Both the position numbers and the translations under genes were made by a program. 64,000 nucleotides of DNA from assembly GCA_027485645.1 (NCBI GenBank), contig JAIXQR010000007.1, positions 372,001 to 436,000 on the forward strand, written 5' to 3'. Source of the stretch: a bacterium. Its GTDB lineage: Bacteria; Armatimonadota; Fimbriimonadia; Fimbriimonadales; Fimbriimonadaceae. The notes under the pieces are model-generated. The model worked only from the letters and a program-made list of their open reading frames with translations. It ran no database searches and was not told the DNA's origin. Numbering within the stretch: the first letter of the stretch is position 1; every line of letters starts with the position of its first letter. Shown here in pieces: positions 28,924 through 63,616 of this stretch.

Positions 28924-31900
28924 GTGCGTACGGCTGAATGGGCGAAGAGATTTGCCGAACTGCCCGCGGTTAGCGAGCTTTTTCGTTCCAGCACTGCGTC
29001 TGCGGTTTGGCAAAGCATCGCCCCCGAGGCTCGACCCTTCTACATTGCGGCCCGGTATCTGGAGCAGCCGCAGAAAACGCTGATCGTCACCGGTAGCTAC
29101 GATCGCGCCCTCGCGTGGCAAGCCAAGCTCCAAATGTGCGGGATCAGCCCCGGCGTGATCCACCAGCTCCCGAGCGGAACCAGCGCCCTCTTCGAAGACT
29201 CCGCCCCCGAGCACATCTCCCTTTCCGACCGTCTCGGCAGCCTCCGCGCCCTCGTCGAAGATCATCCGAACATCGTCATCACTTCCCCGCAGGCGGCCCT
29301 CGAACGCACCTTGCCGCGCGATGTCCTGATGGCGGCGTTTGTCGAAGTCAAAACCGGCCAGACCCTCGACCGCGACCAGTTCCTCTCACAGCTTTCCTCC
29401 CTCGGCTACGAAGCCAGCGACCCCGTTCGCATTCCCGGCCAGTTCTCGCATCGCGGCGGAATCATCGACGTCTTCCCGACCGGACGCGACTACCCCGTCC
29501 GAATCGAGCTCTTCGGAGACGAAGTCGAATCCATCCGCCAGTTCGATTCGAACAGCCAAAGATCGGTCGGAAACATCCCCGCCATTTCCCTGGCCCCATC
29601 GCGCGAAACCCTGTACTTCGGCCACGTGGAAGACATGACCGAGTGGCTCAGCACCTCTGCGGAGCGGGAAGCCACCCTGCTCGACGATGATGCCGCGGAA
29701 CTCCTGAAGACCCGCATCGCTGCCGACATCGCCGCCCTGGCCCAGCGCAGCTACTTCGACCGCATCGATCTCTACCGCCCCATCCTCCACCCCGATTCCG
29801 GCTGCGCGGTTGATTTGCTCAGCGACGAAGACTGCCTGATCCTCGATGAGCCGGTAGAAATCGACGCCATCGCAACCCGCGCCGAGGACGAACTCGACCA
29901 GGGCCTCAAAGCCCGCGCTAAGCGCGGCGAAATCCTGCACAGCCCGATGAGTGACTTCGGCCTTCCGCCCGAGAAGCTCGCCGGCCACGCAAACACCCTC
30001 AGCCTCACCAGCATGAACGACCTGCCCGAGTGGGTCAGCGCCGCCGCAACCATCGACGTTGGCGCCGTCTCGCTGGACAGCTATCGCGGCCGACCCGATG
30101 CCCTCGCTGCCACCCTCCGCAACTACGGCACCCAAGGCTTCACCGTCCTCTTCACCACCGATCAGCCGATGCGCGCGAAAGCCGTGCTTGGCCAAGCCGA
30201 TATTCACCCCTTCGAAGTCGCCGAGAAGGGCGTCCCTGGCACCTACCTTTCCCACGGCAACCTCGGCGGAGGCTTCGTCCTTCCGAACGACAAATTCGCC
30301 CTCGTCTCCGATGCCGAACTCTTCGGCGTCGCCCGCCTGAAACTGCCGCAGAAGCGGTTCATGGAAGGCTCACCCATCGCCACTGTGCTCGACCTGAAGC
30401 CGGGCGATTATGTGGTCCACATCAACTTCGGGATCGGCGTTTTCCGCGGCCTCGTCAAGCGGACCGTCGAAGGCGTCGAAAAGGAGTTCCTGTTTGTCGA
30501 ATACCAAGCCCCCGACAAGCTCTTTGTCCCCACCGATCAGCTCGACCGCATCCAAAAATATCTCAATCCGTCGGATACCGAGCCAAAGCTCAACCGACTG
30601 AGCGGAGGTGAATGGCAGCGGACCCTGGGAAAAGCGAAGGAGGAGGCCAAGGCCTTCGCCCGGGACCTCGTTAAGCTCTACGCCCAACGAACCCGCGTTC
30701 AGCGAAGATCGTACGGACCCGACACGCCGTTCCAGTACGAAATGGAATCGACCTTCCCTTGGGTCGAAACCCCAAGCCAGCTTAAGGCGATCAAAGAAGC
30801 CAAAGAAGACATGGAAAAAGGCCATCCCATGGACCGCCTGGTCTGTGGAGACGTCGGCTTTGGCAAAACTGAAGTCGCCATCCGTGCTGCCTTTAAGGCC
30901 GTGCAAGGCAACCGCCAAGTCGCCGTCCTTTGCCCAACCACCATCCTCTCCGAACAGCATTTCCGCAACTTCCAAGAGCGGCTCGGCTCCTTCGGAACCC
31001 GCCTCGCCCTCATCAATCGCTTCACCACCACGACCGAGAAGAAGGACATCTGCAAGCGACTCGAGGCGGGAGAAGTCGAGATCATCGTCGGAACCCACTC
31101 CCTCCTCGGCACCGGAATCGGGTTCAAAGACCTCGGCCTCACCATCATCGACGAAGAGCAGAAGTTCGGTGTGAAGCAAAAGGAGATGCTGAAGCAACTT
31201 CGGAGCGAAGTCGACGTGCTCACCCTCTCGGCCACGCCCATCCCCCGAACCCTCAGCATGGCCCTCATGGACATCCGGTCGATGTCCCTCATCAACGACC
31301 CACCGCCGGGCCGATTGCCCATCCGCACCTACGTTCGAAGCTACGCCGGCGAAGTCATTCGAGAAGCCATCCTCCGCGAACTCGCCCGTGGCGGGCAGGT
31401 CTTCTATGTCTACAACCGCGTGGAGTCGATCATGCACGTGTACGAGAAGCTCCGCAAGCTCGTCCCCACCGCGCGCATCGGCGTGGGCCACGGGCAGATG
31501 AACGAGAAAGAGCTCGAACCGATCATGGTCGGGTTCATTCGCGGCGAAATCGACATTCTCCTCTCCACGACCATCGTCGAAAACGGCATCGACATCAGCA
31601 ACGCCAACACCCTCATTGTCGAAGGTGCCGATAAGCTCGGCCTGTCGCAGTTGTATCAGCTACGAGGCCGCGTCGGACGTTCCGACCGTCAGGCCTATGC
31701 CTACTTCCTCTACAGCGGAACGATGGACCTTTCCTTCATCGACCAAGGTCCGCGCCAAGACAGCGCCACCGACCTGAAGCGGAAGCACAAAACCGTCAGC
31801 GAAGGCGCGATGGCGCGGTTGCAGGCCCTGCAAGAGTTCTCCAGCCTCGGCTCTGGCTATTCCCTCGCCTTCCGCGACCTCCAAATCCGCGGCGCGGGCG

Positions 31901-32517
31901 AGCTCCTTGGCGCAAAGCAAAGCGGAACGATGGTCACGGTCGGCTATGAGCTCTACACCCAGCTTATCAACGAAGCCGTGACGCAGTTGAAGAACTCGGT
32001 CGACGGAACGCGGACCGGGGATTCCGACGAAGTCCGTGACCCGCTCGCGAACCTCGAGCCGTTGCCGATGTTCGAAGTACCCGTGGTGGCGATGCTGCCC
32101 GAGTCGTACATCCGCGACCAGGCGCAACGGCTGTACTACTACCAGCGCATCATGTCGGTGCGAGACTCGCTCACCCTCGGCGCGGTCCAGGCCGAAGTCG
32201 AAGACCGCTACGGTCGCCCGCTGCCCGAGGTTCGAAATGCCTTCCGCGTCATGGAACTGCGCCTCCGCGCGCGAGACCTCAGCATCGAAAAGCTGGACGC
32301 CCGACAGGCGAAGCTAACCATCAAGTTCGCGGCCGACGTCTCCCACGGCCCCCGCGTCTTCAGCCTCGCCCAAAAGAAAAACCGCGACTGCCACACCGGC
32401 GCCGGCGGCCTCGTCTGGCCGTATCAGGGCAACCCGCTGACCGCGATTGAGAACTTCATGAACATCCTCACGGAAAGCATCGCCGCGGTCGATGCGGCGC
32501 GGATGTCGCTGAGCTAG
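28924..32517 (+). CDS. mfd: Transcription-repair coupling factor Mfd
   Basis: A 1197-residue protein with the full Mfd order: a UvrB-like N-terminal part (PGQFSHRGGIIDVFP), the RNA polymerase-interacting domain at about 480-560, RecG-type translocase motors with GDVGFGKTEVA near 642, the DEEQ box near 742, LSATPIPRTL and QLRGRVGRSD, and the TRCF C-terminal domain. It displaces stalled RNA polymerase and recruits UvrA. The start is GTG 28924. Confidence 0.97.
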   Translation: MRTAEWAKRFAELPAVSELFRSSTASAVWQSIAPEARPFYIAARYLEQPQKTLIVTGSYDRALAWQAKLQMCGISPGVIHQLPSGTSALFEDSAPEHISLSDRLGSLRALVEDHPNIVITSPQAALERTLPRDVLMAAFVEVKTGQTLDRDQFLSQLSSLGYEASDPVRIPGQFSHRGGIIDVFPTGRDYPVRIELFGDEVESIRQFDSNSQRSVGNIPAISLAPSRETLYFGHVEDMTEWLSTSAEREATLLDDDAAELLKTRIAADIAALAQRSYFDRIDLYRPILHPDSGCAVDLLSDEDCLILDEPVEIDAIATRAEDELDQGLKARAKRGEILHSPMSDFGLPPEKLAGHANTLSLTSMNDLPEWVSAAATIDVGAVSLDSYRGRPDALAATLRNYGTQGFTVLFTTDQPMRAKAVLGQADIHPFEVAEKGVPGTYLSHGNLGGGFVLPNDKFALVSDAELFGVARLKLPQKRFMEGSPIATVLDLKPGDYVVHINFGIGVFRGLVKRTVEGVEKEFLFVEYQAPDKLFVPTDQLDRIQKYLNPSDTEPKLNRLSGGEWQRTLGKAKEEAKAFARDLVKLYAQRTRVQRRSYGPDTPFQYEMESTFPWVETPSQLKAIKEAKEDMEKGHPMDRLVCGDVGFGKTEVAIRAAFKAVQGNRQVAVLCPTTILSEQHFRNFQERLGSFGTRLALINRFTTTTEKKDICKRLEAGEVEIIVGTHSLLGTGIGFKDLGLTIIDEEQKFGVKQKEMLKQLRSEVDVLTLSATPIPRTLSMALMDIRSMSLINDPPPGRLPIRTYVRSYAGEVIREAILRELARGGQVFYVYNRVESIMHVYEKLRKLVPTARIGVGHGQMNEKELEPIMVGFIRGEIDILLSTTIVENGIDISNANTLIVEGADKLGLSQLYQLRGRVGRSDRQAYAYFLYSGTMDLSFIDQGPRQDSATDLKRKHKTVSEGAMARLQALQEFSSLGSGYSLAFRDLQIRGAGELLGAKQSGTMVTVGYELYTQLINEAVTQLKNSVDGTRTGDSDEVRDPLANLEPLPMFEVPVVAMLPESYIRDQAQRLYYYQRIMSVRDSLTLGAVQAEVEDRYGRPLPEVRNAFRVMELRLRARDLSIEKLDARQAKLTIKFAADVSHGPRVFSLAQKKNRDCHTGAGGLVWPYQGNPLTAIENFMNILTESIAAVDAARMSLS

Positions 32518-32552: not shown

Positions 32553-33119
32553 ATGATGGAACGACTACCACTGCCCGCAACCGTTGCCGAAGTTCAAGCC
32601 ATCCATGGCCCCACCGGGGAGCGAATCGTTCATCAGGCGCTGGCATACGTCGCCATGAGAAATCTGCAGTTTGTCGTTCAAAACGCGGCAACCCCGCTGG
32701 TGGATCAAATAGGAGAATCACTGCCTGAATGGGTTCAATCGGGAAAATTCGAAGACTTTGCGCAGGACTATCCGTTTGGTAGTGTCTTGCGATTTGCTGT
32801 CCAGTTCGAAGTCGCCTCCGAGTACAAGAACGAGCAGATCAAGACCCTGCTGGAGTCCCTCGATCCTGATCACGCGATGATTCTCGGCAGCATATCGGTC
32901 CCCAAATCCGAGATTGTCTCGGTATCCGACCTTTTATCGTCCCGGCATTACACCTATGTTGAAATGTTTTGCATTTATCCGCAGTACGGCGGATGGGTGT
33001 TTTGGCGAACCCGAGAATATGAGTACTACGGGGCGGGATTCATGCCGCTCCCCGATAAGGTCCTGGCGTCTAGCGTCTATGACTTGGCCGACATGAAATA
33101 CAGGGAGTATTTCGGTTGA
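32553..33119 (+). CDS. Hypothetical protein
   Basis: A 188-residue protein I do not recognise. No signal peptide or membrane helix is evident. The C-terminal third is unusually rich in aromatic residues (YGGWVFWRTREYEYYGAGF). It begins with two ATG codons 36 bases after mfd and has weak ribosome binding signals. It opens a stretch of unrecognised genes to 38.9 kb. The coding call rests on length, position and a non-overlapped frame. Confidence 0.6.
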   Translation: MMERLPLPATVAEVQAIHGPTGERIVHQALAYVAMRNLQFVVQNAATPLVDQIGESLPEWVQSGKFEDFAQDYPFGSVLRFAVQFEVASEYKNEQIKTLLESLDPDHAMILGSISVPKSEIVSVSDLLSSRHYTYVEMFCIYPQYGGWVFWRTREYEYYGAGFMPLPDKVLASSVYDLADMKYREYFG

Positions 33120-33259
33120 GCCATTTCTTTTAAACGCTTCCAGAAGGCAAGACTATGGATGTAGCTGGTCGTAGTTGCTTCACGAACCCAACTTGCAGTC
33201 CCAATGAGAACTAAGTCGTGGTATATGCCGCCCGCGTCTCGCTGAGCTGAAGCCAGTCC

Positions 33260-33814
33260 TTAGCCAAAGTGCCGGATAACGTCGATGCGGACCGAGTCCA
33301 ACTCGTTTCGAACGTAGGTGAGGCGCAATTGGATGGACTCGACCTTCTTGTCAAATCCAAAGTGCTCGGCGATGATCCAGTGCTCCGCACCCTTGATCTT
33401 CTGGTTAACGATGATGCGTCTGGCGTCAAAGTTCCCGACCGCGCCCAACTTCGAATCGCCGAAGACTTTTGCCCAGCCCAGTTTCCTGGAACACCAGTCG
33501 CTCAGGGAAAACTTGGCGCTCCTTCGTTTATCGGCCATTTTCATGAACGCAATAGATTCCAAGAGATACGAACCGTTCTGAACAACCCATCCATTCGCTT
33601 GAATCGCGACCTGTTCCGTCCTCCAAAATCTTCCGCTGTTTGGATGACCGCCGATCGTCGTCGTCCCTTTGCCGAAGAGCTTGTCAAAATGATGAATCGT
33701 AAGCGATTCGATCTTCCTTGTCCCGATGTAGCAAAAGAACGGTGCTTCCGTCGGAACCTGAACTCTGCTCTCCCCCAGCGCAAGGAGCATCGCTGCAGCG
33801 GACAGGATGACCAT
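33260..33814 (-). CDS. Hypothetical secreted protein
   Basis: A 184-residue protein with a short hydrophobic N-terminus (VILSAAAMLLALGES) likely to be a signal peptide. The body has alternating strands such as TYVRNELDSVRIDV. No family is recognised. ATG 33814 is chosen over a TTG six bases upstream. It is the only minus-strand gene in the 32.5-38.9 kb region; 140 bases without a gene separate it from the preceding plus-strand gene. Confidence 0.5.
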   Translation of the reverse strand: MVILSAAAMLLALGESRVQVPTEAPFFCYIGTRKIESLTIHHFDKLFGKGTTTIGGHPNSGRFWRTEQVAIQANGWVVQNGSYLLESIAFMKMADKRRSAKFSLSDWCSRKLGWAKVFGDSKLGAVGNFDARRIIVNQKIKGAEHWIIAEHFGFDKKVESIQLRLTYVRNELDSVRIDVIRHFG

Positions 33815-34109
33815 GTCCAAATCTTAACCCAAAGGAAATTCTGCAAAAGATCCATTTGGTTCCAAATGGTCAAGGCTTTCAAACAGCTGGTGAAGTATCT
33901 GAAAATTCGGTTGGCGTTTAGCGTGAGAACCGATAGAATGAAATCTGATCGTGACAAGGCTTCCTCACCTTGATTCGCAAGCCGTAGATGCAGGGACGAA
34001 CGTTCGCTATATCGAGGGCACGGTCCGTTGATCATCGTTTGCGCACGAAAGCTCCACCACCTGAAGTTAGCCTGATGAAGACCGAATTGAACCCGCACCC
34101 AAAGGCCCC
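33815..34109 (+). promoter_or_regulatory. Intergenic region with promoter and short leader ORF
   Basis: TTGGCG at 33911-33916 and TAGAAT at 33934-33939 have a 17-base spacer, the best classical promoter in this region, pointing at the aspartyl-protease genes. A GTG at 33951 opens a 26-codon frame ending at 34031 whose last residues (NVRYIEGTVR) resemble the prepilin-tail proteins at the left edge. It could be a relic or a leader peptide. No ribosome binding site is clear. Confidence 0.4.
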
Positions 34110-34979
34110 ATGATCCAACAAACACTGATGGCAATTGGCACTTTGACAAGTGTAGTCGTCCCTGGACAAAGTACCGGCGAGTTGACTGAATTGTCAGCGT
34201 CGTTCCATACTCGCATTCCCATCATTACGGTTTACACTCTGCAGAACGGTTCTACTAAAGCGGTCCGTTTCGTCTTAGATTCAGGCGCCATGAACTCCAG
34301 GCATCTGCGCATGAAGTCCGAAGGTTCGCGAACCTTCTTCGCCGACCCAGCTCGCAAGGTAAAGATCAATAAGGTGAACTTTCTTCCCTTGACCGAAGCA
34401 TCTGTCCCTCTTTCGCTTCAACTGGAGCTCAAAAAGATCAGAGTTGACGGTATGTTCGGCTTCGATTTCTTTGATGAGCACGATATCGTCATTGACTATG
34501 AGAGGAGCAAAGTGTTCATTTCAAAGAATTCGCTCTCGCCCGAGTGGGTCGCGCGTAATGTTGAATGGTTCAAGAAACTCAAGCTCACTGACTACTATCT
34601 CTGGAAAACGGTCTTAACAAAGAATCCTAAAAATGAACGTGCCTTTAATTTACTTGTATTTGATACTGGCGCATCAATCACTTGCTTACCCACAACTGGG
34701 TACGAACACGAGATAAACTCGGATGTTGAGCCATACCATTTATATACGATCGATGGCACCATCGTCGGCAAGCGTTTAGAGCGCGAGTTAACCGTCGACG
34801 GATATAACGCGATTCTGCGGGCGAAAGTCTTTGTCGGGCCTGCAACCCCCCTCTTTTCTCCTTCCGATTTTGGCAGCCGGCTCCTGATACAGTTCCGCCA
34901 AAACACGGTTTGGAAGCTGAAGCCTGAGTTTCGAACTTCTTCCATCCAACAACTTAAGGCGGCCAAGGCGACGAGATGA
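34110..34979 (+). CDS. Bilobal retropepsin-like aspartyl protease (first of pair)
   Basis: A 289-residue protein with two aspartyl-protease motifs: VLDSGAMNSR at about 51-60 and VFDTGASITCLP at about 184-195. Two D-(S/T)-G lobes in one chain suggest a self-contained bilobal active site rather than a homodimer. The N-terminus is mildly hydrophobic and may be an export signal. In the first lobe DSGA replaces the commoner DTG. Its stop overlaps the next gene, a second protein of the same design. Target and maturation are unknown. Confidence 0.7.
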   Translation: MIQQTLMAIGTLTSVVVPGQSTGELTELSASFHTRIPIITVYTLQNGSTKAVRFVLDSGAMNSRHLRMKSEGSRTFFADPARKVKINKVNFLPLTEASVPLSLQLELKKIRVDGMFGFDFFDEHDIVIDYERSKVFISKNSLSPEWVARNVEWFKKLKLTDYYLWKTVLTKNPKNERAFNLLVFDTGASITCLPTTGYEHEINSDVEPYHLYTIDGTIVGKRLERELTVDGYNAILRAKVFVGPATPLFSPSDFGSRLLIQFRQNTVWKLKPEFRTSSIQQLKAAKATR

Positions 34980-36328
34980 CAATCGTATCCGCGCTCGTCG
35001 CGATGATTTCCACCGTCAGTTCTGGCGGACATCCACCTCAAATCCCCATAACGGACACGGGATACTTCTCTGCCGTGACGGTTCCGATCCGCGTGGGAGA
35101 CAAGATCTATCGCGCATTGGTAGATACGGGCTCCCCGGATAGCTTCATTTCTTCTCACCTGACCAAAGAAGCTTCGGTGGTTGGCCGGATATCGACCCAA
35201 GATGGCGAGCTTGCGATTAAGTTGTCATCTTGGGATATGTCGGAGTCTGGAGACGAAAGTAGCGAGGTCGAAGTTGTAATCGGGATGGATGTTCTTGCAA
35301 GCCAAATCGTGGAGATTGACCTCAAAGAACGCAACCTCCGCTTCCTGTGTGAGTCAAAGAACGGCAATTCACAACCAGTAGATCAGTCGGTGAGATCGTA
35401 TAGAACCAAAAGACTCAAATTTAGGCGTGATGAAAGCCTTCGACCAGTTGCGGACTTTGAAATCGAAGGCAAGATTCGCGAATTTGCGATCGATACTGGG
35501 TCAAATCAAACGGCCATCACCCGCGGGGACGTGCCGGCAAGCTTCTGTATCCGCGTAAGTACCTTTTATGGTAGAGATTTGGAAGGACACTCTTTAGTAG
35601 CTTTACGATTGCAAGATGAATCTACCTTTGCGATCGTCGGATCGTGGGATTCGGCCAATGTTCTTGGCCTTAATCAGCTCACAAACACGTATGCTCGCTT
35701 TGATTTCAGGGCCGGTACCTTGGATTACGTTCCGTACAAGAGGAATGAGCGTTCTGCCTTTATCATGAGCCAAATTTTGGGTGTCCCGTCGCTTGATGGC
35801 ATCACTTTCGGATCATCCTCAGCGCCTACTTTCACTTGGCAAGGAACAAAACGTGAAAGCAAGCAAAAGATTCTTCAGCAAATCCAAGGGCTAACAACGA
35901 AGTCCGTTGAAAGCGTTCGAGAAAAGATTCCGGAATGGAGAGCCACCGCCATGTTCACTCTTCTGAACGAAAAGTCGGTCATCCCGCGCGACGACGAGTC
36001 TCTCGAACCGACATCACCACCGCCACCTTTCGCGGCAATCAAGGGCTACTGCTGGACGTGGTTACCAGGGAACGGATGGTCCGAGCATCTTCGGGATTCC
36101 GAATGTAAAGAGCGAAGCCGCTGTTGGCCCTATACTGCTGCCGATCTTGAATCTGGCAAATGGCCCCGATACGGACTAGCCATTCTCTCACCAAGCGGGC
36201 AAGAACTTGCATTGCGGCCAGGCAGGAATATCTTTCCACCAGGAACTACCCTTAAGTATATTCATCCGAAAATGATCAAAACAGACGCTGCCAGCGGCCA
36301 TCACACCGTCCTTATCCCCAAACAATGA
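34976..36328 (+). CDS. Bilobal retropepsin-like aspartyl protease (second of pair)
   Basis: A 450-residue protein. Motifs ALVDTGSPDSFISS (about 43-56) and FAIDTGSNQTAIT (about 169-181) give two DTG lobes. A further 200 residues follow, with a proline-rich linker near 340 and a cysteine- and tryptophan-rich segment, so it has an extra C-terminal domain lacking in its neighbour. The first 20 residues may be an export signal. ATGA overlap with the preceding protease implies co-translation. Confidence 0.7.
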   Translation: MTIVSALVAMISTVSSGGHPPQIPITDTGYFSAVTVPIRVGDKIYRALVDTGSPDSFISSHLTKEASVVGRISTQDGELAIKLSSWDMSESGDESSEVEVVIGMDVLASQIVEIDLKERNLRFLCESKNGNSQPVDQSVRSYRTKRLKFRRDESLRPVADFEIEGKIREFAIDTGSNQTAITRGDVPASFCIRVSTFYGRDLEGHSLVALRLQDESTFAIVGSWDSANVLGLNQLTNTYARFDFRAGTLDYVPYKRNERSAFIMSQILGVPSLDGITFGSSSAPTFTWQGTKRESKQKILQQIQGLTTKSVESVREKIPEWRATAMFTLLNEKSVIPRDDESLEPTSPPPPFAAIKGYCWTWLPGNGWSEHLRDSECKERSRCWPYTAADLESGKWPRYGLAILSPSGQELALRPGRNIFPPGTTLKYIHPKMIKTDAASGHHTVLIPKQ

Positions 36329-36452
36329 ATTGGATACGCTTGATGAAACAATTGTAGAAGTTCGACTAGCAACAGCTGCAACGCCGTAGTCGAGCCGACG
36401 CTAGAACCCTGTTACATGTGATCCGTAGTAAATCCCCACTAGGAGCGGCATT

Positions 36453-37250
36453 TTGATTGACGAAGACTTTGATCGCCTCTATGAACTGCAATGCTGGCCC
36501 GAGATATTGGTCCGGTTGCGGTGCTCGGCGCGAAACCTCAGCTCCCCGAACCTGCTCCGAGCGATTGGTCTCGCTTATTCCTTTCAACTCCGGCGATTGC
36601 ATCGGTCCCTTTGGAGCGTTTCCGAAGACCATGAAGATTTGACTGATCAAGTGATCGATGAATGGGTCGCGCGCATGATTGACCACGATCTTGATCGCAT
36701 CGATCCCACGTTGCCTCGAGAGTTCGTGAGCGCCATCCAAGATTCCATCCTGATCCAGGAGGAAGTGCAAGGGTTGTACCGATTCCATCCGATTCGCGGG
36801 ATACCGATAAGTAGCTGTGCCCGATTCCTTGTTTTTCATGAAACACGCAGGAACACCCACCCCGTCGGACCAAGCGAAAATGTCTATAAAAGCCTCCCAG
36901 AAGGATCACTATCGCAGAAACTGGCACGCCTTTATCTGGCCGGTCGCGAGCGCGACTACATTCTTTTTGAATCGCTCTGGGAGCAGTTTCGACCGGAAAT
37001 GGAGAACAGTCCGACTTTCTGGCAATTCGGCGCAGCGGCTGCATTTCGGCGCCGGAAGTTTTCTACTGCCCACACGAGGGCAAGCAAGTCGGTGCAGCTG
37101 TTTCGGCAAGCTCACGTCAACTATTTGACGTTAGGCAGAGCATCCTTCCTTTGCGGAAAGTGGCGAACACTCTATTGGGCCGCCGGAGAAGTGGTACTTA
37201 AGAAGGAGAGAATCGAACGGCGGGTCAGGAACTACGCCAACTTTCGATGA
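36453..37250 (+). CDS. Hypothetical protein
   Basis: A 265-residue, mostly helical protein rich in arginine, tryptophan and acidic residues, with no signal peptide. It starts at TTG 36453, eight bases after AGGAG. Helical pairs in the last 100 residues (LARLYLAGRERDYILFESLW, then AAAAFRRRKFSTAHTRA) resemble TPR-like repeats, but the match is not firm. The 124-base gap before it contains a 7-bp inverted repeat (36362-36368 with 36387-36393), which may be a weak terminator. Confidence 0.55.
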   Translation: MIDEDFDRLYELQCWPEILVRLRCSARNLSSPNLLRAIGLAYSFQLRRLHRSLWSVSEDHEDLTDQVIDEWVARMIDHDLDRIDPTLPREFVSAIQDSILIQEEVQGLYRFHPIRGIPISSCARFLVFHETRRNTHPVGPSENVYKSLPEGSLSQKLARLYLAGRERDYILFESLWEQFRPEMENSPTFWQFGAAAAFRRRKFSTAHTRASKSVQLFRQAHVNYLTLGRASFLCGKWRTLYWAAGEVVLKKERIERRVRNYANFR

Positions 37251-37356
37251 CCACCCCCAAGACCCTTCCGATGCGATTCTAGAAGTGTCGTAAGATTGAG
37301 TGTAATCAACCGCTGCCCACCTATGGGTCCAAGCCTCAACAAAAGATTCTCTGCCC

Positions 37357-38196
37357 ATGACCGTCTCCGCCATCCTATTCGCCGCTTCCCTCCTCCAAGC
37401 TTCCAGCTTAGAAAAGCTTCCCGAAATTTCCTTCAAAGGCGCGACGACGAATGCAAGATGTCGAAGTTTCGGATTAACAACTCTGTACCGAGTCTATGAA
37501 GGAGACATTCAGAATTCTTACAACATTACTAGCTTGGTTACCGATCTTTGGCGCAACGAGCTCGTTGCCTTCATAAACAAGAACGCACAGGCGACCAAAT
37601 GGCGAGAAATGAATGTGCGCTTTGCGTTGTACACCGACAAGAACGAAGCCCTTATTTTGGATGAACTGGGTTACTTCGAATTTCGGTTCAAGGAGCAAAG
37701 AGTCCGTGGGATACTTCCCATCCAAGAGCTTCGAACAGTCTTTGCTCGCCTGTTCCCTTTTCCAGACCTACAAGGACACGGCCTTGTGGACTGGCCCCAA
37801 GACATGCCGTCCCCGATGCTCAGTTCTGCGCATACTCAAACACCACAAGTCGAGGCTTACTACATCACCTTCGGTTATGAAACGTTATTCCCGCTCAACT
37901 CAACGAGCATAAAGAAGGACGGGTTTGACGTAACGTCGCTGGTGACCACTCGCGGCACGTGGATTTTGCCCTTCTTCAAACAGCCCACTGCTACCGGCAA
38001 ACTGAACAAGCAGGATATCAAGTTGTGGCTTAGAGCCGGCTCCGACACCCTCATCGTCGATTCGGCGGGGAATTACAGTCTGAACGGAGCCGAGCACTCG
38101 CTTTGCCGAGACAGGTTCAAGGAGTTCAAGCGGAAGTTCTTCTTCTGTATTCCAATTAACGACCCTGATGCTCTGCTGGAAAACGAAAAAACTTGA
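37357..38196 (+). CDS. Hypothetical secreted protein
   Basis: A 279-residue protein with signal-like N-terminus (TVSAILFAASLLQASS). It contains two cysteines near the N- and C-terminal ends. I see no known motif. The stop overlaps the next gene start (TGATG). Confidence 0.55.
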   Translation: MTVSAILFAASLLQASSLEKLPEISFKGATTNARCRSFGLTTLYRVYEGDIQNSYNITSLVTDLWRNELVAFINKNAQATKWREMNVRFALYTDKNEALILDELGYFEFRFKEQRVRGILPIQELRTVFARLFPFPDLQGHGLVDWPQDMPSPMLSSAHTQTPQVEAYYITFGYETLFPLNSTSIKKDGFDVTSLVTTRGTWILPFFKQPTATGKLNKQDIKLWLRAGSDTLIVDSAGNYSLNGAEHSLCRDRFKEFKRKFFFCIPINDPDALLENEKT

Positions 38197-38894
38197 TGGA
38201 TGAAACCAGTTTCGATTCAGAGTCGCCAGAGGCCGAACAGTCCTCTGAGGACTCCGTCATCGATGACCGACCGAGGGGTTGGTTTGAAGACACCGTTATC
38301 AAGAACTTCTCGGGTCTGCTCCGAGGTACCTCCAGCCGTGGCTTGCACTTCATAAACAGTCAGATTGAACAACAGAACTCACGCCGGTCACCGCTCTACA
38401 GCGGATGCCTCTACATAACCGACTGCAAATTCTCAAATCTGGATCGAATCGCGGACCTGAGACTGGAAGGTCTGGATGTTCGGAATCAAAAGTTCGAAAC
38501 AGGATTCACTCAGAACTTGAGCGTTCGGGGAATCATGACGCTCGAGGAGTGTGATCATCGCGCCTCGTGCATTGTCTCTGGCGTCACCAAGTCCACCTGG
38601 CTCACCTATAGGCACTGCCACGAGTCGGTGCTCGATTACTCGGTAGACCGCCGCATCGAAAGCGTTACCATCAAGTCGGTCCTCGCAAATCCCGTACGTC
38701 TGCCATCGAGCTACCGGCTCACCGCGGAGCGCGTCCGTCTCGAGCATGTGATCGTGCAATATCCCGTTTGTCCCATGATCGCTGAAGCCAGGGCGATCTT
38801 CATCATCGGCATGCCACTTCCCGAAGCCCATCGCCTGGCGGCGGAAACGAAGGGAAAGGTCTTCTGGGGCCGCAAGCGCAACCGGATCAAGTGA
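38196..38894 (+). CDS. Hypothetical cytoplasmic protein with beta-helix-like character
   Basis: A 232-residue protein overlapping the previous stop. No signal peptide is seen. The middle consists of short strands of alternating polar and hydrophobic residues (CLYITDCKFSNLDRI, LRLEGLDVRNQKF, LSVRGIMTLEECDHRA), loosely like pentapeptide or right-handed beta-helix proteins. The N-terminus is strongly acidic. Function unknown. Confidence 0.55.
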   Translation: MDETSFDSESPEAEQSSEDSVIDDRPRGWFEDTVIKNFSGLLRGTSSRGLHFINSQIEQQNSRRSPLYSGCLYITDCKFSNLDRIADLRLEGLDVRNQKFETGFTQNLSVRGIMTLEECDHRASCIVSGVTKSTWLTYRHCHESVLDYSVDRRIESVTIKSVLANPVRLPSSYRLTAERVRLEHVIVQYPVCPMIAEARAIFIIGMPLPEAHRLAAETKGKVFWGRKRNRIK

Positions 38895-39111: not shown

Positions 39112-40011
39112 ATGCAAGCCAGTCCAACAGCGGTTAACCCTTGGATTCTTGCCATGAGATTACGAACCTTGCCCGCCGCGGCGGTCCCGGTCGTGGTAGG
39201 CGGAGCGGTTGCCTATCGCGAGAATGTCCTGCAGCCCCTGCCGCTCCTCGCCGCCCTGATCGGAGCCCTGCTCATCCAGATCGGCGCGAACTTCGCCAAC
39301 GACCTCTTCGATTTCCAGAAAGGTGCCGACACCGCCGAAAGAGTCGGCCCCGTCCGGGTCACCCAAGCCGGACTCCTGACGCCCAAGCAGGTCGGCTTCG
39401 GAGCCGTCATGGCCTTCCTCTTGGCCTCCCTCTGCGGTCTGTACCTCATCTGGTTCAGCGGCTGGCCCGTCGCGGTCATCGGCGTCCTCTCCATCATCTC
39501 CGCCGTTCTGTACGTCGGCGGCCCGCTGCCCTACGGCTACCGCGGCCTCGGAGAGTTCTTCGTCATCCTCTTTTTCGGTGTCGTCGCGGTCTGCGGAACC
39601 TACTTCGTCCAAGCCCTTAAGGTCTCCCCCATGGCCGCGGTCGCCTCTATCCCCATCGGATTCCTCTGCGCCAACATCCTCGTGGTCAACAACGTCCGCG
39701 ACATCGAAACCGATCGCGTCGCCGACAAACGAACTCTCGCCGTCCAGTTCGGCCGAGACTTCGGCCTTCACGAATACGCCACCCTGCTGCTCCTCAGCCA
39801 CGCCATCGTCCTGGTAGCCGCGATCGCCAAAATCCTCCCCGTCGGCACCCTAATCGTGCTACTCTCTCTCCCCCTTGGCCTAAAGCTCTACAAGCGCCTC
39901 GAAACCCTAACCGGCCCCGCCCTAAACCCGGTCCTCGGCGCCTCCGCCCAGTACGAGCTCCTCTTCGGCGCTCTGCTCTCCGTCGGCATCCTCGTCCCGA
40001 TCCAGTTCTAA
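39112..40011 (+). CDS. menA: 1,4-dihydroxy-2-naphthoate prenyltransferase MenA
   Basis: A 299-residue UbiA-type membrane prenyltransferase with about eight membrane helices. The Mg-binding motifs are NDLFDFQKGAD (about 63-73) and DIETDRVADKRT (about 201-212); GPVRVTQAG is typical of MenA. It attaches the polyprenyl tail to DHNA at the membrane, making demethylmenaquinone. It is 16 kb from the men operon. TAAACT seven bases before the ATG suggests a leaderless transcript. Confidence 0.92.
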   Translation: MQASPTAVNPWILAMRLRTLPAAAVPVVVGGAVAYRENVLQPLPLLAALIGALLIQIGANFANDLFDFQKGADTAERVGPVRVTQAGLLTPKQVGFGAVMAFLLASLCGLYLIWFSGWPVAVIGVLSIISAVLYVGGPLPYGYRGLGEFFVILFFGVVAVCGTYFVQALKVSPMAAVASIPIGFLCANILVVNNVRDIETDRVADKRTLAVQFGRDFGLHEYATLLLLSHAIVLVAAIAKILPVGTLIVLLSLPLGLKLYKRLETLTGPALNPVLGASAQYELLFGALLSVGILVPIQF

Positions 40012-60524: not shown

Positions 60525-60614
60525 GCGTATTCGCCTCACATCTTCAGAGAGTTGTCCAAAGGTACATCTCTGCGCAGCGAAACGAATCCCCAGCAGAAAC
60601 GTCCGTGCAACAAG

Positions 60615-61337
60615 GTGCTTTTTTCTCTGGTCGTATCTACTTTATTGACCGTACAGGGGCCATCATTATCGATCCCTTGCCTCGCAGTCGACCCGGCTTA
60701 TGAGAAACAGAGAGATCAGACGAATCCTGGTAAGTGGCATTCTTCGCGCTACCTCAATTCTTCGCAGAACATTGTCTTGACATTCGCGTGGAACAAACTT
60801 CCAGAACTGGAGGAAAAGCGAAAGTTCGATGATCCAGCGGCCCCCCTGAAAGGAGTTTCTGAGGTTTCGCCCGACGGTTTTCCTCTCGGCTCGCGATTCC
60901 GGCTCATATCCAACCCAGGCATGTTTACGATTGAGGCATTCTTGCCAGATGGCATCGCCTCACTTAAAGTCGCAAGAGCACCAACTCCAGAAGAGCCCAA
61001 TCCTGGAAGGGACAAATCGGACTTCGGTAAGGACTCCAAGAAGTGGCTACAAATTTTCCGGCAGTACAGTGCTCAAATCGCGGCTCGAAGAGCCTTATCC
61101 ACCTCGACCTTTACGGCAGAAGGAACTGGAGTTGAATTCAAGAAAGTGACAGACTTCGAAAGTCTTGACGCGGCATGGCCAAATACTTCAAAAGTGAAAC
61201 TGCGAAGAAACGGTAGCGAACTCATATTTGTATTCGGAGCCAGCGGGTACAAGAAAGACGGCGTCTGGAAAACCCTATCAGACGGACCGATGGTTCGTGG
61301 AACAGAGTTACTTGTGCCATCAAGTTCCCTAGAATAG
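60615..61337 (+). CDS. Tandem-family secreted protein, copy 1
   Basis: A 240-residue member of a four-copy tandem family. The N-terminus (LFSLVVSTLLTVQGPS) is signal-like. GTG 60615 is chosen because it aligns exactly with the ATG starts of the other three; the frame extends to TTG 60552. This is the most diverged copy, with the shared landmarks DGFPLG, EAFLPDGIAS, FESLDAAWPN and a final LLVPSSSLE. The last 60 residues resemble a truncated copper-amine-oxidase N-terminal stalk domain (inference). Function unknown. Confidence 0.65.
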   Translation: MLFSLVVSTLLTVQGPSLSIPCLAVDPAYEKQRDQTNPGKWHSSRYLNSSQNIVLTFAWNKLPELEEKRKFDDPAAPLKGVSEVSPDGFPLGSRFRLISNPGMFTIEAFLPDGIASLKVARAPTPEEPNPGRDKSDFGKDSKKWLQIFRQYSAQIAARRALSTSTFTAEGTGVEFKKVTDFESLDAAWPNTSKVKLRRNGSELIFVFGASGYKKDGVWKTLSDGPMVRGTELLVPSSSLE

Positions 61338-61383
61338 GAGATTGTTCACAGATCCGATAGAGAGACTCACCCCAAAGTAAGTA

Positions 61384-62115
61384 ATGAACTTAACCCTTCT
61401 GATTTGCCTTTCAGCCACCACCCAAGCTCCGGATTTTACGATTCCGCTGCTTAGTGCTGATTCTGATTACACAAACGACGTTACGCGAAACCAACCGGGG
61501 AAGTCAACTGATCTCGACTTTCGTTCAATTGATGGGAGTTCCCGGCTCTTTTTTTGGTTCGTGTCGCAGAACGAACACCCTGGCACCAACTTCACTGAAG
61601 CCGCAGGCGGGGAGGTTGGTAAGGAGCCACCTGAGATCTCTGAGAAGCTTGTGGATGGCTATTCACTCGGGTTACGCGCCCAGACGTTCTCGGTAGAGCG
61701 ATTGCACAGAATTGAAACCTTTCTGCCCGATGGCTTCGCTTCCTTTAGTTTCTATGGAACGAAAGGCCATCAAGGGGTCGCCTCCAGTAAACCGAACTCG
61801 GTTGCTGCCCGGTCGAAATGGCTGATTGCGTTCCGGCAGTTCTGTGCAAGGCTTGCTGCCTATCGTGCTGGAAACGGTGATTCGTTTCAGGCGAAAGTGA
61901 CGAAGGTCGAGTTTCAGAAAGTAACGAAGTTCGAAAGTCTCGATGGTGTCTGGCCGAACGCGTCGCAGGTGAGAATCAGGGCAAAGGATGGCGAACGCAT
62001 CTACGTGCTTGGCGCCAATGGTTATAAGAAGAATGGAATCTGGCAGGAGCTAAACGACGCACCGATCGTAAAGAACGATGAGCTATTCGTGCCATCAGAT
62101 TCCCTGAGAAATTGA
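61384..62115 (+). CDS. Tandem-family secreted protein, copy 2
   Basis: A 243-residue paralogue with signal-like start (LTLLICLSATTQA). Landmarks DGYSLGLRA, FLPDGFAS, RQFCARLAAYRAGNGDSF, FESLDGVWPNAS, VLGANGYKKNG and ELFVPSDSL. It is nearly identical to copies 3 and 4 over the C-terminal 90 residues, but divergent in the middle. Confidence 0.7.
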   Translation: MNLTLLICLSATTQAPDFTIPLLSADSDYTNDVTRNQPGKSTDLDFRSIDGSSRLFFWFVSQNEHPGTNFTEAAGGEVGKEPPEISEKLVDGYSLGLRAQTFSVERLHRIETFLPDGFASFSFYGTKGHQGVASSKPNSVAARSKWLIAFRQFCARLAAYRAGNGDSFQAKVTKVEFQKVTKFESLDGVWPNASQVRIRAKDGERIYVLGANGYKKNGIWQELNDAPIVKNDELFVPSDSLRN

Positions 62116-62156
62116 ACGGATCGTATGAGTAAAGCAATCGCCTTTGGAGAAGAGTT

Positions 62157-62873
62157 ATGAACTTGACCCTGTTACTGTGCCTATCGGTAGCAACTCAAAA
62201 TCAGGAGATTTTGGTCCCGCGAATAGGTGCTGATCCTGCCTACAAGCAAATCCGACTGAGACACGTTCCGGAACAAGACATCGAGCTCTCGTTCAGGTCA
62301 ACCGTTGAAAATGCTCGCTTGGACTTTTTTTGGATAGATTCTTCGCAAGTAACACAAAACTCATTTATGGATCCTGCCGCTGAAAACCTTGGGATTTCGG
62401 TTGGAACGCAAGATGGATATCCTCTTGGGCTAAGAGCTAGAACGATAACAGATGATCGTTACTACATCATTGAGGCTTACCTTCCAAATGGCTATGCCTC
62501 GTTCAGGTACACGCGTGCATTGGAAGCCACAACAAACCTGGACCCAGCAAGTCCAAACTTCATTGCTGCCCGATCGGATTGGTCAATCGCATTCCGGCAG
62601 TTTTGTGCCAGACTCGCAGGCTTTCGCGCTGGATCTGGAGATTCCTTCCGGTCCAAACTGACAGAAGTCGAGTTTCAGAAAGTGACCCAGTTCGAAAGTC
62701 TCGATGGCGTCTGGCCGAACGCGTCACAAGTGCGGATTGTGAAGGGCGGGAACGAACTCATTTTCGTACTGGGCGCTAACGGCTATAAAAAGAATGGAGT
62801 CTGGCAGGACCTGCAAGATGCACCAATCGTCAGGAACGATGAGCTTTTCGTGCCGTCTAGCGCCATAAAATAA
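62157..62873 (+). CDS. Tandem-family secreted protein, copy 3
   Basis: A 238-residue paralogue with signal-like start (LTLLLCLSVATQN). Shared landmarks are DGYPLGLRART, AYLPNGYASFR, RQFCARLAGFRAGSGDSF, FESLDGVWPNAS and ELFVPSSAIK. The start follows the preceding stop by 41 bases with GAGAAG nearby. Confidence 0.7.
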   Translation: MNLTLLLCLSVATQNQEILVPRIGADPAYKQIRLRHVPEQDIELSFRSTVENARLDFFWIDSSQVTQNSFMDPAAENLGISVGTQDGYPLGLRARTITDDRYYIIEAYLPNGYASFRYTRALEATTNLDPASPNFIAARSDWSIAFRQFCARLAGFRAGSGDSFRSKLTEVEFQKVTQFESLDGVWPNASQVRIVKGGNELIFVLGANGYKKNGVWQDLQDAPIVRNDELFVPSSAIK

Positions 62874-62905
62874 TGTAACCCCAGCCCTCAACTACGATAC
62901 TTGCC

Positions 62906-63616
62906 ATGAACTTAACTCTCATACTATGCCTTACCACTGCGCCTGACGTGCCGGACTTCATAATCCCAAGGCTTGGTGAAGATTCCGCATATCGGAGCCT
63001 GTACACACGAAACCAACCCGGGAAAGAAGTTGATCTTGGATTCCGGTCTACCACTGATAAATCTTCGTTGTATTTCAGCTGGGCGTCGAACATTGTGAGC
63101 CCTGCAAAAGACTTTGTTCAAACCGCCAGCACGACCGGTGTTGTCGGTGAACTTCCTGATGGCTATCCGCTCGGATTCCGAGCCCGGATGATCACTACTC
63201 CATATGATTACCGGATTGATACCTTCCTTCCGGACGGGATTGCTACGCTGAGATTTAGTCTTGGAACCATAGATCCAAAACTTGATCGCGGCTCTCGTAT
63301 CTTCAATGAAACTCATTCAAACGGGCTTATCGCGTTCCGTCAGTTTTGCGCAAAACTTTCGGCCTATCGTGCTGGAAATGGTGATTCGTTCCAGGCGAAA
63401 GTGACAAAGGTCGAGTTTCAGAAGGTGACGAAATTCGAAACGCTCGATGGTGTCTGGCCGAATGCGTCACGAGTGCGGATCAAGAAGAACGGTAACGAAT
63501 TGATCTTCGTCTTAGGCGCACTCGGATACATGAAAAATGGCTTTTGGCAAGACCTCAAGGACGCGCCAATCGTAAAAGACGATGAGTTGTTCGTACCGTC
63601 CAGTTCCCTAAATTAG
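62906..63616 (+). CDS. Tandem-family secreted protein, copy 4
   Basis: A 236-residue paralogue with signal-like start (LTLILCLTTAPD). Shared landmarks are DGYPLGFRARM, TFLPDGIATLR, RQFCAKLSAYRAGNGDSF, FETLDGVWPNAS and ELFVPSSSLN. It shares long DNA identity with copy 2 around 63370-63470. Confidence 0.7.
   Translation: MNLTLILCLTTAPDVPDFIIPRLGEDSAYRSLYTRNQPGKEVDLGFRSTTDKSSLYFSWASNIVSPAKDFVQTASTTGVVGELPDGYPLGFRARMITTPYDYRIDTFLPDGIATLRFSLGTIDPKLDRGSRIFNETHSNGLIAFRQFCAKLSAYRAGNGDSFQAKVTKVEFQKVTKFETLDGVWPNASRVRIKKNGNELIFVLGALGYMKNGFWQDLKDAPIVKDDELFVPSSSLN

What the first reader, a model, noticed from the sequence alone, without database searches (positions are those of the whole stretch)
32553..38894. 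Cluster of unrecognised genes around paired aspartyl proteases
Seven successive genes lack recognisable families except for two aspartyl-protease-like proteins. Four of the plus-strand genes are coupled in overlapping pairs (34976 on 34110, 38196 on 37357). Several have export signals. Base composition and codon use look less GC-rich than the flanking mfd and menA genes. This is the best candidate for an undescribed secreted system.
Basis: inference. Interest (0 to 1): 0.5.

Follow-up and report, generated by a model that had tools for sequence, protein, structure and literature searches.

The report
Variable toxin-immunity gene island
A fast-changing stretch of low-GC genes between two housekeeping genes of a bacterium looks like a store of protection genes against rival bacteria's toxins, next to two pepsin-like secreted proteins, rather than one new secretion machine.

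Summary
Seven genes (g1-g7, 32553-38894; g2 on the minus strand) lie between mfd and menA with lower GC, two 4-nt overlaps and four export-like N-termini; only g3/g4 match a known family (retropepsin-like). A single "secreted system" is not supported. In the one relative sharing mfd-menA (G014), DNA homology stops at the mfd end and resumes inside g6; there the spot holds an RHS toxin gene, a candidate immunity gene, a g5 pseudogene and a two-lobed retropepsin without catalytic Asp, then g6C-g7-menA. The key is g6: two copies of an exported ~120-aa domain, without library model, found in 11 of 291 phylum genomes (16 genes). Five of 16 lie within 6 kb downstream of an RHS core (0.11 expected). 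In G129 the g6-type gene overlaps (ATGA) the stop of an RHS tip with a Peptidase_M91 domain; in G025 it follows a HELGH-containing remnant by 3 nt. Best reading: g6 is an envelope-acting immunity family for RHS toxins, and the window island an orphan-immunity/accessory island without its toxin. The roles of g3/g4 (catalytic motifs intact) and of g1, g2, g5, g7 are inferred only. New variant of a known kind.

The parts
28924..32517 (+). mfd, conserved upstream flank
   Evidence: 98.8% aa identity to G014 over the 591 C-terminal residues fetched; DNA homology to G014 ends at 32515
32553..33119 (+). g1, 188 aa, no export signal seen, no family; no convincing relative in 71 genomes
33260..33820 (-). 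g2, 186 aa, hydrophobic N-terminus; best codon score of three overlapping ORFs
34110..34979 (+). g3, 289 aa, export-like two-lobed retropepsin-like protein (DSG and DTG motifs)
34976..36328 (+). g4, 450 aa, export-like two-lobed retropepsin-like protein (DTG and DTG) with a C-terminal region of unknown type; overlaps g3 by 4 nt
36453..37250 (+). g5, 265 aa, no export signal seen; paralogue at G000:C6:298563-299357, pseudogene in G014
37357..38196 (+). g6, 279 aa, export-like protein with two copies of the RHS-linked domain
38193..38894 (+). g7, 233 aa, overlaps g6 by 4 nt; only convincing relative is in G014 (83%)
39112..40011 (+). menA, conserved downstream flank
   Evidence: 95% aa identity to G014

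Best explanation
The mfd-menA interval is a hypervariable spot that holds RHS polymorphic-toxin material in one species and orphan immunity/accessory genes in the other. The defining product is g6, an exported protein with two copies of a domain that acts as an envelope-side immunity (inhibitor) domain against RHS C-terminal toxins, at least one of which is an M91-type metalloprotease. In the window the toxin is absent, so the genes would protect against toxins of neighbours. Shown: the variability, the g6 domain family, its linkage to RHS genes and the ATGA overlap with an M91 RHS tip in G129. Inferred: that g6 binds and neutralises the toxin, that g1, g2, g5 and g7 are also immunity or accessory genes, and that g3/g4 are pepsin-like exported proteins carried along or recruited to cut or bind RHS material.
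For: Spot: DNA homology with G014 breaks at window 32515 and resumes at 37837, inside g6; G014 has an RHS gene there (17 RHS repeats, DUF6531), a 174-aa gene 65 nt behind it, a g5 pseudogene, a retropepsin-like gene, g6C and g7. Family: g6N, g6C and relatives form one profile; G042, left out of that profile, is hit at 3e-13; phylum scan 11 of 291 genomes, 16 genes (17 domain rows). RHS linkage: 5 of 16 genes have a same-strand RHS core within 6 kb upstream (G014, G042, G008, G024, G129), expected 0.11, Poisson P about 1e-7. Coupling: in G129 the RHS-tip stop TGA overlaps the ATG of the g6-type gene and the tip matches Peptidase_M91, 25.4 bits against a cut-off of 25. G025: an 82-codon frame that ends HELGHLMTGAEDDGNDYRGK stops 3 nt before the g6-type ATG. 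G024 has a second two-domain g6 protein behind an RHS gene, with a sub-threshold Imm26 neighbour. Precedent: VgrG2b-PA0261, a periplasmic metallopeptidase toxin with an immunity protein that needs its signal peptide (PMC6899460, passages read).
Against: 11 of 16 g6-type genes have no RHS core within 6 kb upstream, including all 3 in the window's own genome. No window gene matches an Imm family. RHS genes and orphan accessory genes could both simply collect in variable regions; the density test does not remove that. The M91 match is only just over its cut-off and the G025 remnant is no M91 match. g2 is on the other strand and g1 and g7 have no relatives in the RHS loci fetched, so the whole-island claim rests mostly on g6. 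Retropepsins elsewhere in the genus showed no clear RHS link (rows compared by eye; the RHS list is truncated). No expression or binding data.
Confidence: 0.55

Rival explanations
1. Plain variable region: lineage-specific genes of unrelated function collected downstream of mfd, with no shared role in toxin immunity.
For: Low GC and GC3, mixed strands, few relatives for g1 and g7, g6-type genes without RHS nearby at 11 of 16 places.
Against: The g6 family is found downstream of RHS genes far more often than density predicts, once with stop-start overlap to a toxin tip, and G014 has an RHS gene in this very spot.
Confidence: 0.27
2. A small secreted proteolytic module: g3 and g4 are a co-translated pair of exported single-chain aspartic peptidases (comparable to the Rlo peptidases of Pseudomonas, which matter in osmotic stress) with accessory proteins g5-g7.
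For: Intact DSG/DTG and DTG/DTG motifs, 4-nt overlap, export-like N-termini, pepsin-type fold of g4; in G025 a g3-like and a g4-like gene lie about 1.4 kb apart; secreted retropepsin-like enzymes have cell functions (PMC12239564, abstract and outline read).
Against: G014 lacks g3 and g4 there and has a relative without both catalytic Asp, while g6C and g7 persist; retropepsin-type genes occur in 19 of 20 genus genomes, so nothing ties this pair to g5-g7.
Confidence: 0.13
3. Phage-defence island: g3 and g4 resemble the PADLOC candidate family PDC-M08B.
For: E 9e-5 (g3) and 3e-4 (g4).
Against: The match is a 30-40-residue piece of the common retropepsin lobe; no other gene matches PADLOC or PHROGs.
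Confidence: 0.05

Closest known systems
Polyimmunity loci (Zhang et al. 2012, PMC3482391; section 39 read)
   Same: Several unrelated small genes together, no toxin gene inside, content differs between close relatives, tandem domains of one kind in one protein (g6)
   Different: No recognised immunity family; mixed strands and some gaps; contains retropepsin-like proteins; the 2012 survey reports extended loci only in proteobacteria, bacteroidetes, firmicutes and actinobacteria
Orphan immunity arrays of Vibrio cholerae T6SS clusters (PMC5361080, abstract and outline read)
   Same: Immunity-type genes left or gathered where effector genes are exchanged by recombination
   Different: Here RHS toxins, no T6SS gene recognised in the island, and the cognate toxin of the window g6 is unknown
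VgrG2b-PA0261 (Tpe-Tpi) metallopeptidase toxin and periplasmic immunity protein (PMC6899460, passages read)
   Same: Exported small immunity protein behind a HExxH metalloprotease toxin
   Different: No sequence comparison with PA0261 was made; the toxin here is an RHS tip of M91 type
Single-chain two-lobed protein of Bacteroides fragilis, putative endopeptidase (PDB 9iy9)
   Same: Best PDB match for the g3/g4 alignment A3 (E 5.4e-18) and for the g4 model (E 1.1e-7)
   Different: g4 carries a different C-terminal region; the function of 9iy9 was not found in print in one search

Membership tests
Polyimmunity locus | Immunity genes not interrupted by toxin genes or cassettes | tested here: met
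   No RHS core in or near the island (the four of this genome are at C1:872896, C1:911240, C4:62145, C4:480456); tblastn of the G014 RHS and the M91 tip against the window gives best E 0.86
Polyimmunity locus | Small intergenic distances, same orientation | tested here: not met
   g2 is on the minus strand; gaps between neighbouring genes reach 289 nt (33821-34109), though two pairs overlap
Polyimmunity locus | Content differs between close relatives | tested here: met
   Window against G014
Polyimmunity locus | Genes belong to immunity families | tested here: inconclusive
   No Pfam Imm family; g6 family RHS-linked in 5 of 16 cases
RHS toxin immunity protein (g6 domain family) | Gene directly behind the toxin tip | tested here: inconclusive
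   Met in G129 (ATGA overlap) and next to a toxin-like remnant in G025; not met in the window itself
RHS toxin immunity protein (g6 domain family) | Binds and neutralises the cognate toxin | not testable with these tools
   Needs co-expression and binding assays
Retropepsin-like / clan AA aspartic peptidase (g3, g4) | D-T/S-G motif in each lobe and the pepsin/retropepsin fold | tested here: met
   Motifs at g4 D50 and D173 and in both lobes of g3; g4 passes Pfam; g4 fold match to 9iy9 and pepsins from a model of modest confidence (mean pLDDT 56, first lobe mostly 60-91). The fold of g3 was not predicted
Retropepsin-like / clan AA aspartic peptidase (g3, g4) | Proteolytic activity | not testable with these tools
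   Assay needed
PDC-M08 phage-defence candidate | Full-length match to the PDC-M08B model | tested here: not met
   Only 30-40 residues at the end of the model match

The most novel reading that the evidence does not exclude
The g6 domain is a new class of exported immunity protein that blocks metalloprotease-type RHS toxins in the cell envelope, and two-lobed retropepsin-like proteins (active-looking in the window, without catalytic residues in the sister species) are recruited beside it as a second, enzyme-derived layer that cuts or caps incoming RHS toxins.
Probability: 0.15. Interest if true: 0.65.

Novelty: new variant of a known kind. Interest (0 to 1): 0.42.

Why it matters
It gives a testable function to a protein family without a model in the libraries searched, ties it to RHS toxins in a genus where all 20 genomes carry RHS cores, and suggests that envelope-side immunity against protease-type RHS toxins may be more widespread. 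The sister-species pair also shows how toxin and immunity material is exchanged at one fixed chromosomal spot.

Tried and rejected
Peptide deformylase: NCBIfam gave weak matches for g7 (E 7.5e-4, 19 bits against a cut-off of 125) and g5 (E 0.17); too weak and without the metal-site motifs as I recall them, so treated as chance. Viral origin: no relative of g4 in viral contigs, no PHROGs family for any of the seven genes. Relatives in genome contigs: none for g3, one for g7, which is the G014 contig. g6-type protein of G094 in plasmids: one insignificant match. Solved structures for the g6 domain: no convincing sequence match, no Foldseek match at E <= 0.001 in PDB or BFVD, VIA-align 2 best 4r7r, a putative lipoprotein, Z 5.1 over 86 residues, rmsd 3.3, below the level to trust. 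A second copy of the mfd 3' end at 33217-33248 as a scar of insertion: 75% over 32 nt with an in-register stop, but 8 of 442 other stretches of the window score as well, so not claimed. RHS remnants in the window: none. Synteny of mfd-menA beyond G014: menA matched in 4 of 20 genus genomes, mfd in 20 of 20; near each other only in G000 and G014. Literature searches were read as listings; they do not prove that the g6 family is unpublished.

Full report
WHAT IS THERE. Between mfd (28924-32517 +) and menA (39112-40011 +) lie seven genes, six on the plus strand and g2 (33260-33820) on the minus strand. g2 was chosen over two overlapping ORFs by codon score (0.235 bits per codon against 0.035 and -0.116). 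g3/g4 and g6/g7 overlap by 4 nt. GC falls to 0.49-0.54, and GC3 to 0.52-0.61 for five of the seven genes, while g2 and g7 (0.69, 0.68) are at the reference value of 0.68. Hydrophobic N-termini suggest export of g2, g3, g4 and g6. Pfam, NCBIfam, PHROGs and PADLOC recognise only the retropepsin-like nature of g3/g4 (g2 was not submitted to NCBIfam).

THE SPOT IS HYPERVARIABLE. The near relative G014 (its contig is CAMCWC010000009.1, a metagenome-assembled genome labelled Chthonomonas calidirosea) has mfd at 98.8% over the 591 residues fetched and menA at 95%. DNA homology stops at window 32515, two bases before the mfd end, and resumes at 37837, inside g6; only an 86-nt stretch of g5 is shared in between. 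In G014 the interval holds, in order, a 1240-aa RHS protein (17 RHS repeats and DUF6531), a 174-aa gene starting 65 nt behind it, a g5 pseudogene with two stops, a 356-aa two-lobed retropepsin-like protein, a 147-aa protein equal to the C half of g6 (84%), and g7 (83%). The retropepsin-like G014 protein aligns with the genus family but has GTN and TSG where the catalytic D-T-G motifs stand; support by profile alone is weak (E 7.6e-4 in a small set; alignment). menA is matched in 4 of 20 genus genomes and mfd in all 20; they are near each other only in G000 and G014, so the comparison rests on one pair of species.

THE g6 DOMAIN. g6 consists of two copies of one domain of about 120 residues. 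Its N half matches stand-alone proteins at G000:C1:288273 and G014:C9:102584 (33%), its C half the 147-aa G014 protein. A further copy lies downstream of a g5 paralogue at G000:C6, so the order g5-g6 occurs twice in this genome, with another small frame between them in the C6 case. A profile made without the G042 member finds it at 3e-13. In 291 genomes of the phylum the domain occurs in 11 genomes, 16 genes (17 domain rows). AlphaFold2 gives a fairly confident alpha+beta model (mean pLDDT 82.7, pTM 0.74, 12 rows) without a convincing solved relative.

THE RHS LINK. RHS cores (TIGR03696) are present in all 20 genus genomes and all 11 g6-positive genomes. Of the 16 g6-type genes, 5 have a same-strand RHS core within 6 kb upstream: G129 (0.6 kb), G042 (1.1 kb), G024 (2.8 kb to the domain), G008 (3.9 kb, g6-type copy with an internal stop) and G014 at the mfd spot (4.0 kb) (distances). 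The expectation from RHS density is 0.11 genes, Poisson P about 1e-7; it treats genes as placed at random, which accessory genes are not. The other 11, including the three of the window's genome, have none. The strongest single case is G129: an RHS tip whose C-terminal domain matches Peptidase_M91 (25.4 bits, cut-off 25) ends in TGA, and the ATG of the g6-type gene overlaps that stop. In G025 an 82-codon frame that ends in HELGHLMTGAEDDGNDYRGK stops three bases before a g6-type gene; Pfam does not call it M91. HExxH was sought around all 16 genes and lies in a frame ending just upstream only in these two, so the toxin partner may differ between members. In G024 a second two-domain g6 protein stands in an array behind a 1502-aa RHS gene, with a neighbour that resembles Imm26 below cut-off.

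HOW IT PROBABLY WORKS. Exported g6-type proteins would bind RHS toxin tips in the cell envelope, as PA0261 does for the periplasmic metallopeptidase VgrG2b, where the signal peptide of the immunity protein is required (PMC6899460, passages read). M91 domains are predicted in other secreted effectors (PMC9846239, passages read). The window island has no toxin gene, which fits orphan immunity, described as polyimmunity loci (PMC3482391, section 39 read) and as arrays left when effector genes are exchanged (PMC5361080, abstract and outline). The window does not meet all polyimmunity features (orientation, recognised families), so I say that it works like one, not that it is one. Neutralisation is inferred, not shown.

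THE PROTEASES. g3 and g4 each carry two lobes with D-S/T-G motifs, so each could form an active single-chain peptidase of pepsin type; the alignment A3 matches 9iy9 by profile and the g4 model by fold (mean pLDDT 56). Genus genomes carry such domains in 19 of 20 cases, in several of the rows aligned with a C-terminal PDZ-like part (PDZ matches). I found no general link of these genes to RHS loci by comparing the lists, the first of which is truncated. Their presence in both species at this spot, once active-looking and once without catalytic residues, is suggestive but is one case. G025 has a g3-like and a g4-like gene about 1.4 kb apart with other genes between them, so closeness of two such genes is not unique.

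VERDICT. Real, partly explained, more ordinary than a new secretion system, but with an RHS-linked family without a library model at its heart. My own estimates: hypervariable spot 0.95; g6 family as RHS immunity 0.75; whole island as orphan immunity/accessory island 0.55; a role of the proteases in it 0.3.

Noticed in passing
window 60552-63616: Four tandem paralogous proteins of 236-261 aa with hydrophobic N-termini; the related place in G014 (L026 8416-9910) shows two, next to what looks like the same epimerase-like gene: a tandem family that seems to have changed in copy number.
   Followed up: no
window 33217-33248: A 32-nt stretch 75% like the 3' end of mfd, with the stop in register; it could be a scar of recombination at mfd, but it is not significant by a scan of the window.
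   Followed up: partly
L025 5193-7549 (G000:C1) and L070 5549-7358 (G000:C6): Two more small islands of the same genome with g6-type genes beside HEAT-repeat or g5-type genes and no RHS nearby; the matching C6 place in G014 (L096) again has other neighbours.
   Followed up: partly
L033 186-4449 (G008): Three similar RHS-tip-like frames about 4-8 kb downstream of mfd in another species of the genus, on the opposite strand.
   Followed up: no
L106 (CAMCWC010000009.1): The record is labelled Chthonomonas calidirosea, which I recall as a thermophile of another class; the label of this metagenome-assembled genome may be wrong.
   Followed up: no
L003 1006-3171 (G005:C153): A 721-aa protein shares a 61-residue stretch (37%) with the region of g4 around and behind the end of the second lobe (248-308).
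   Followed up: no
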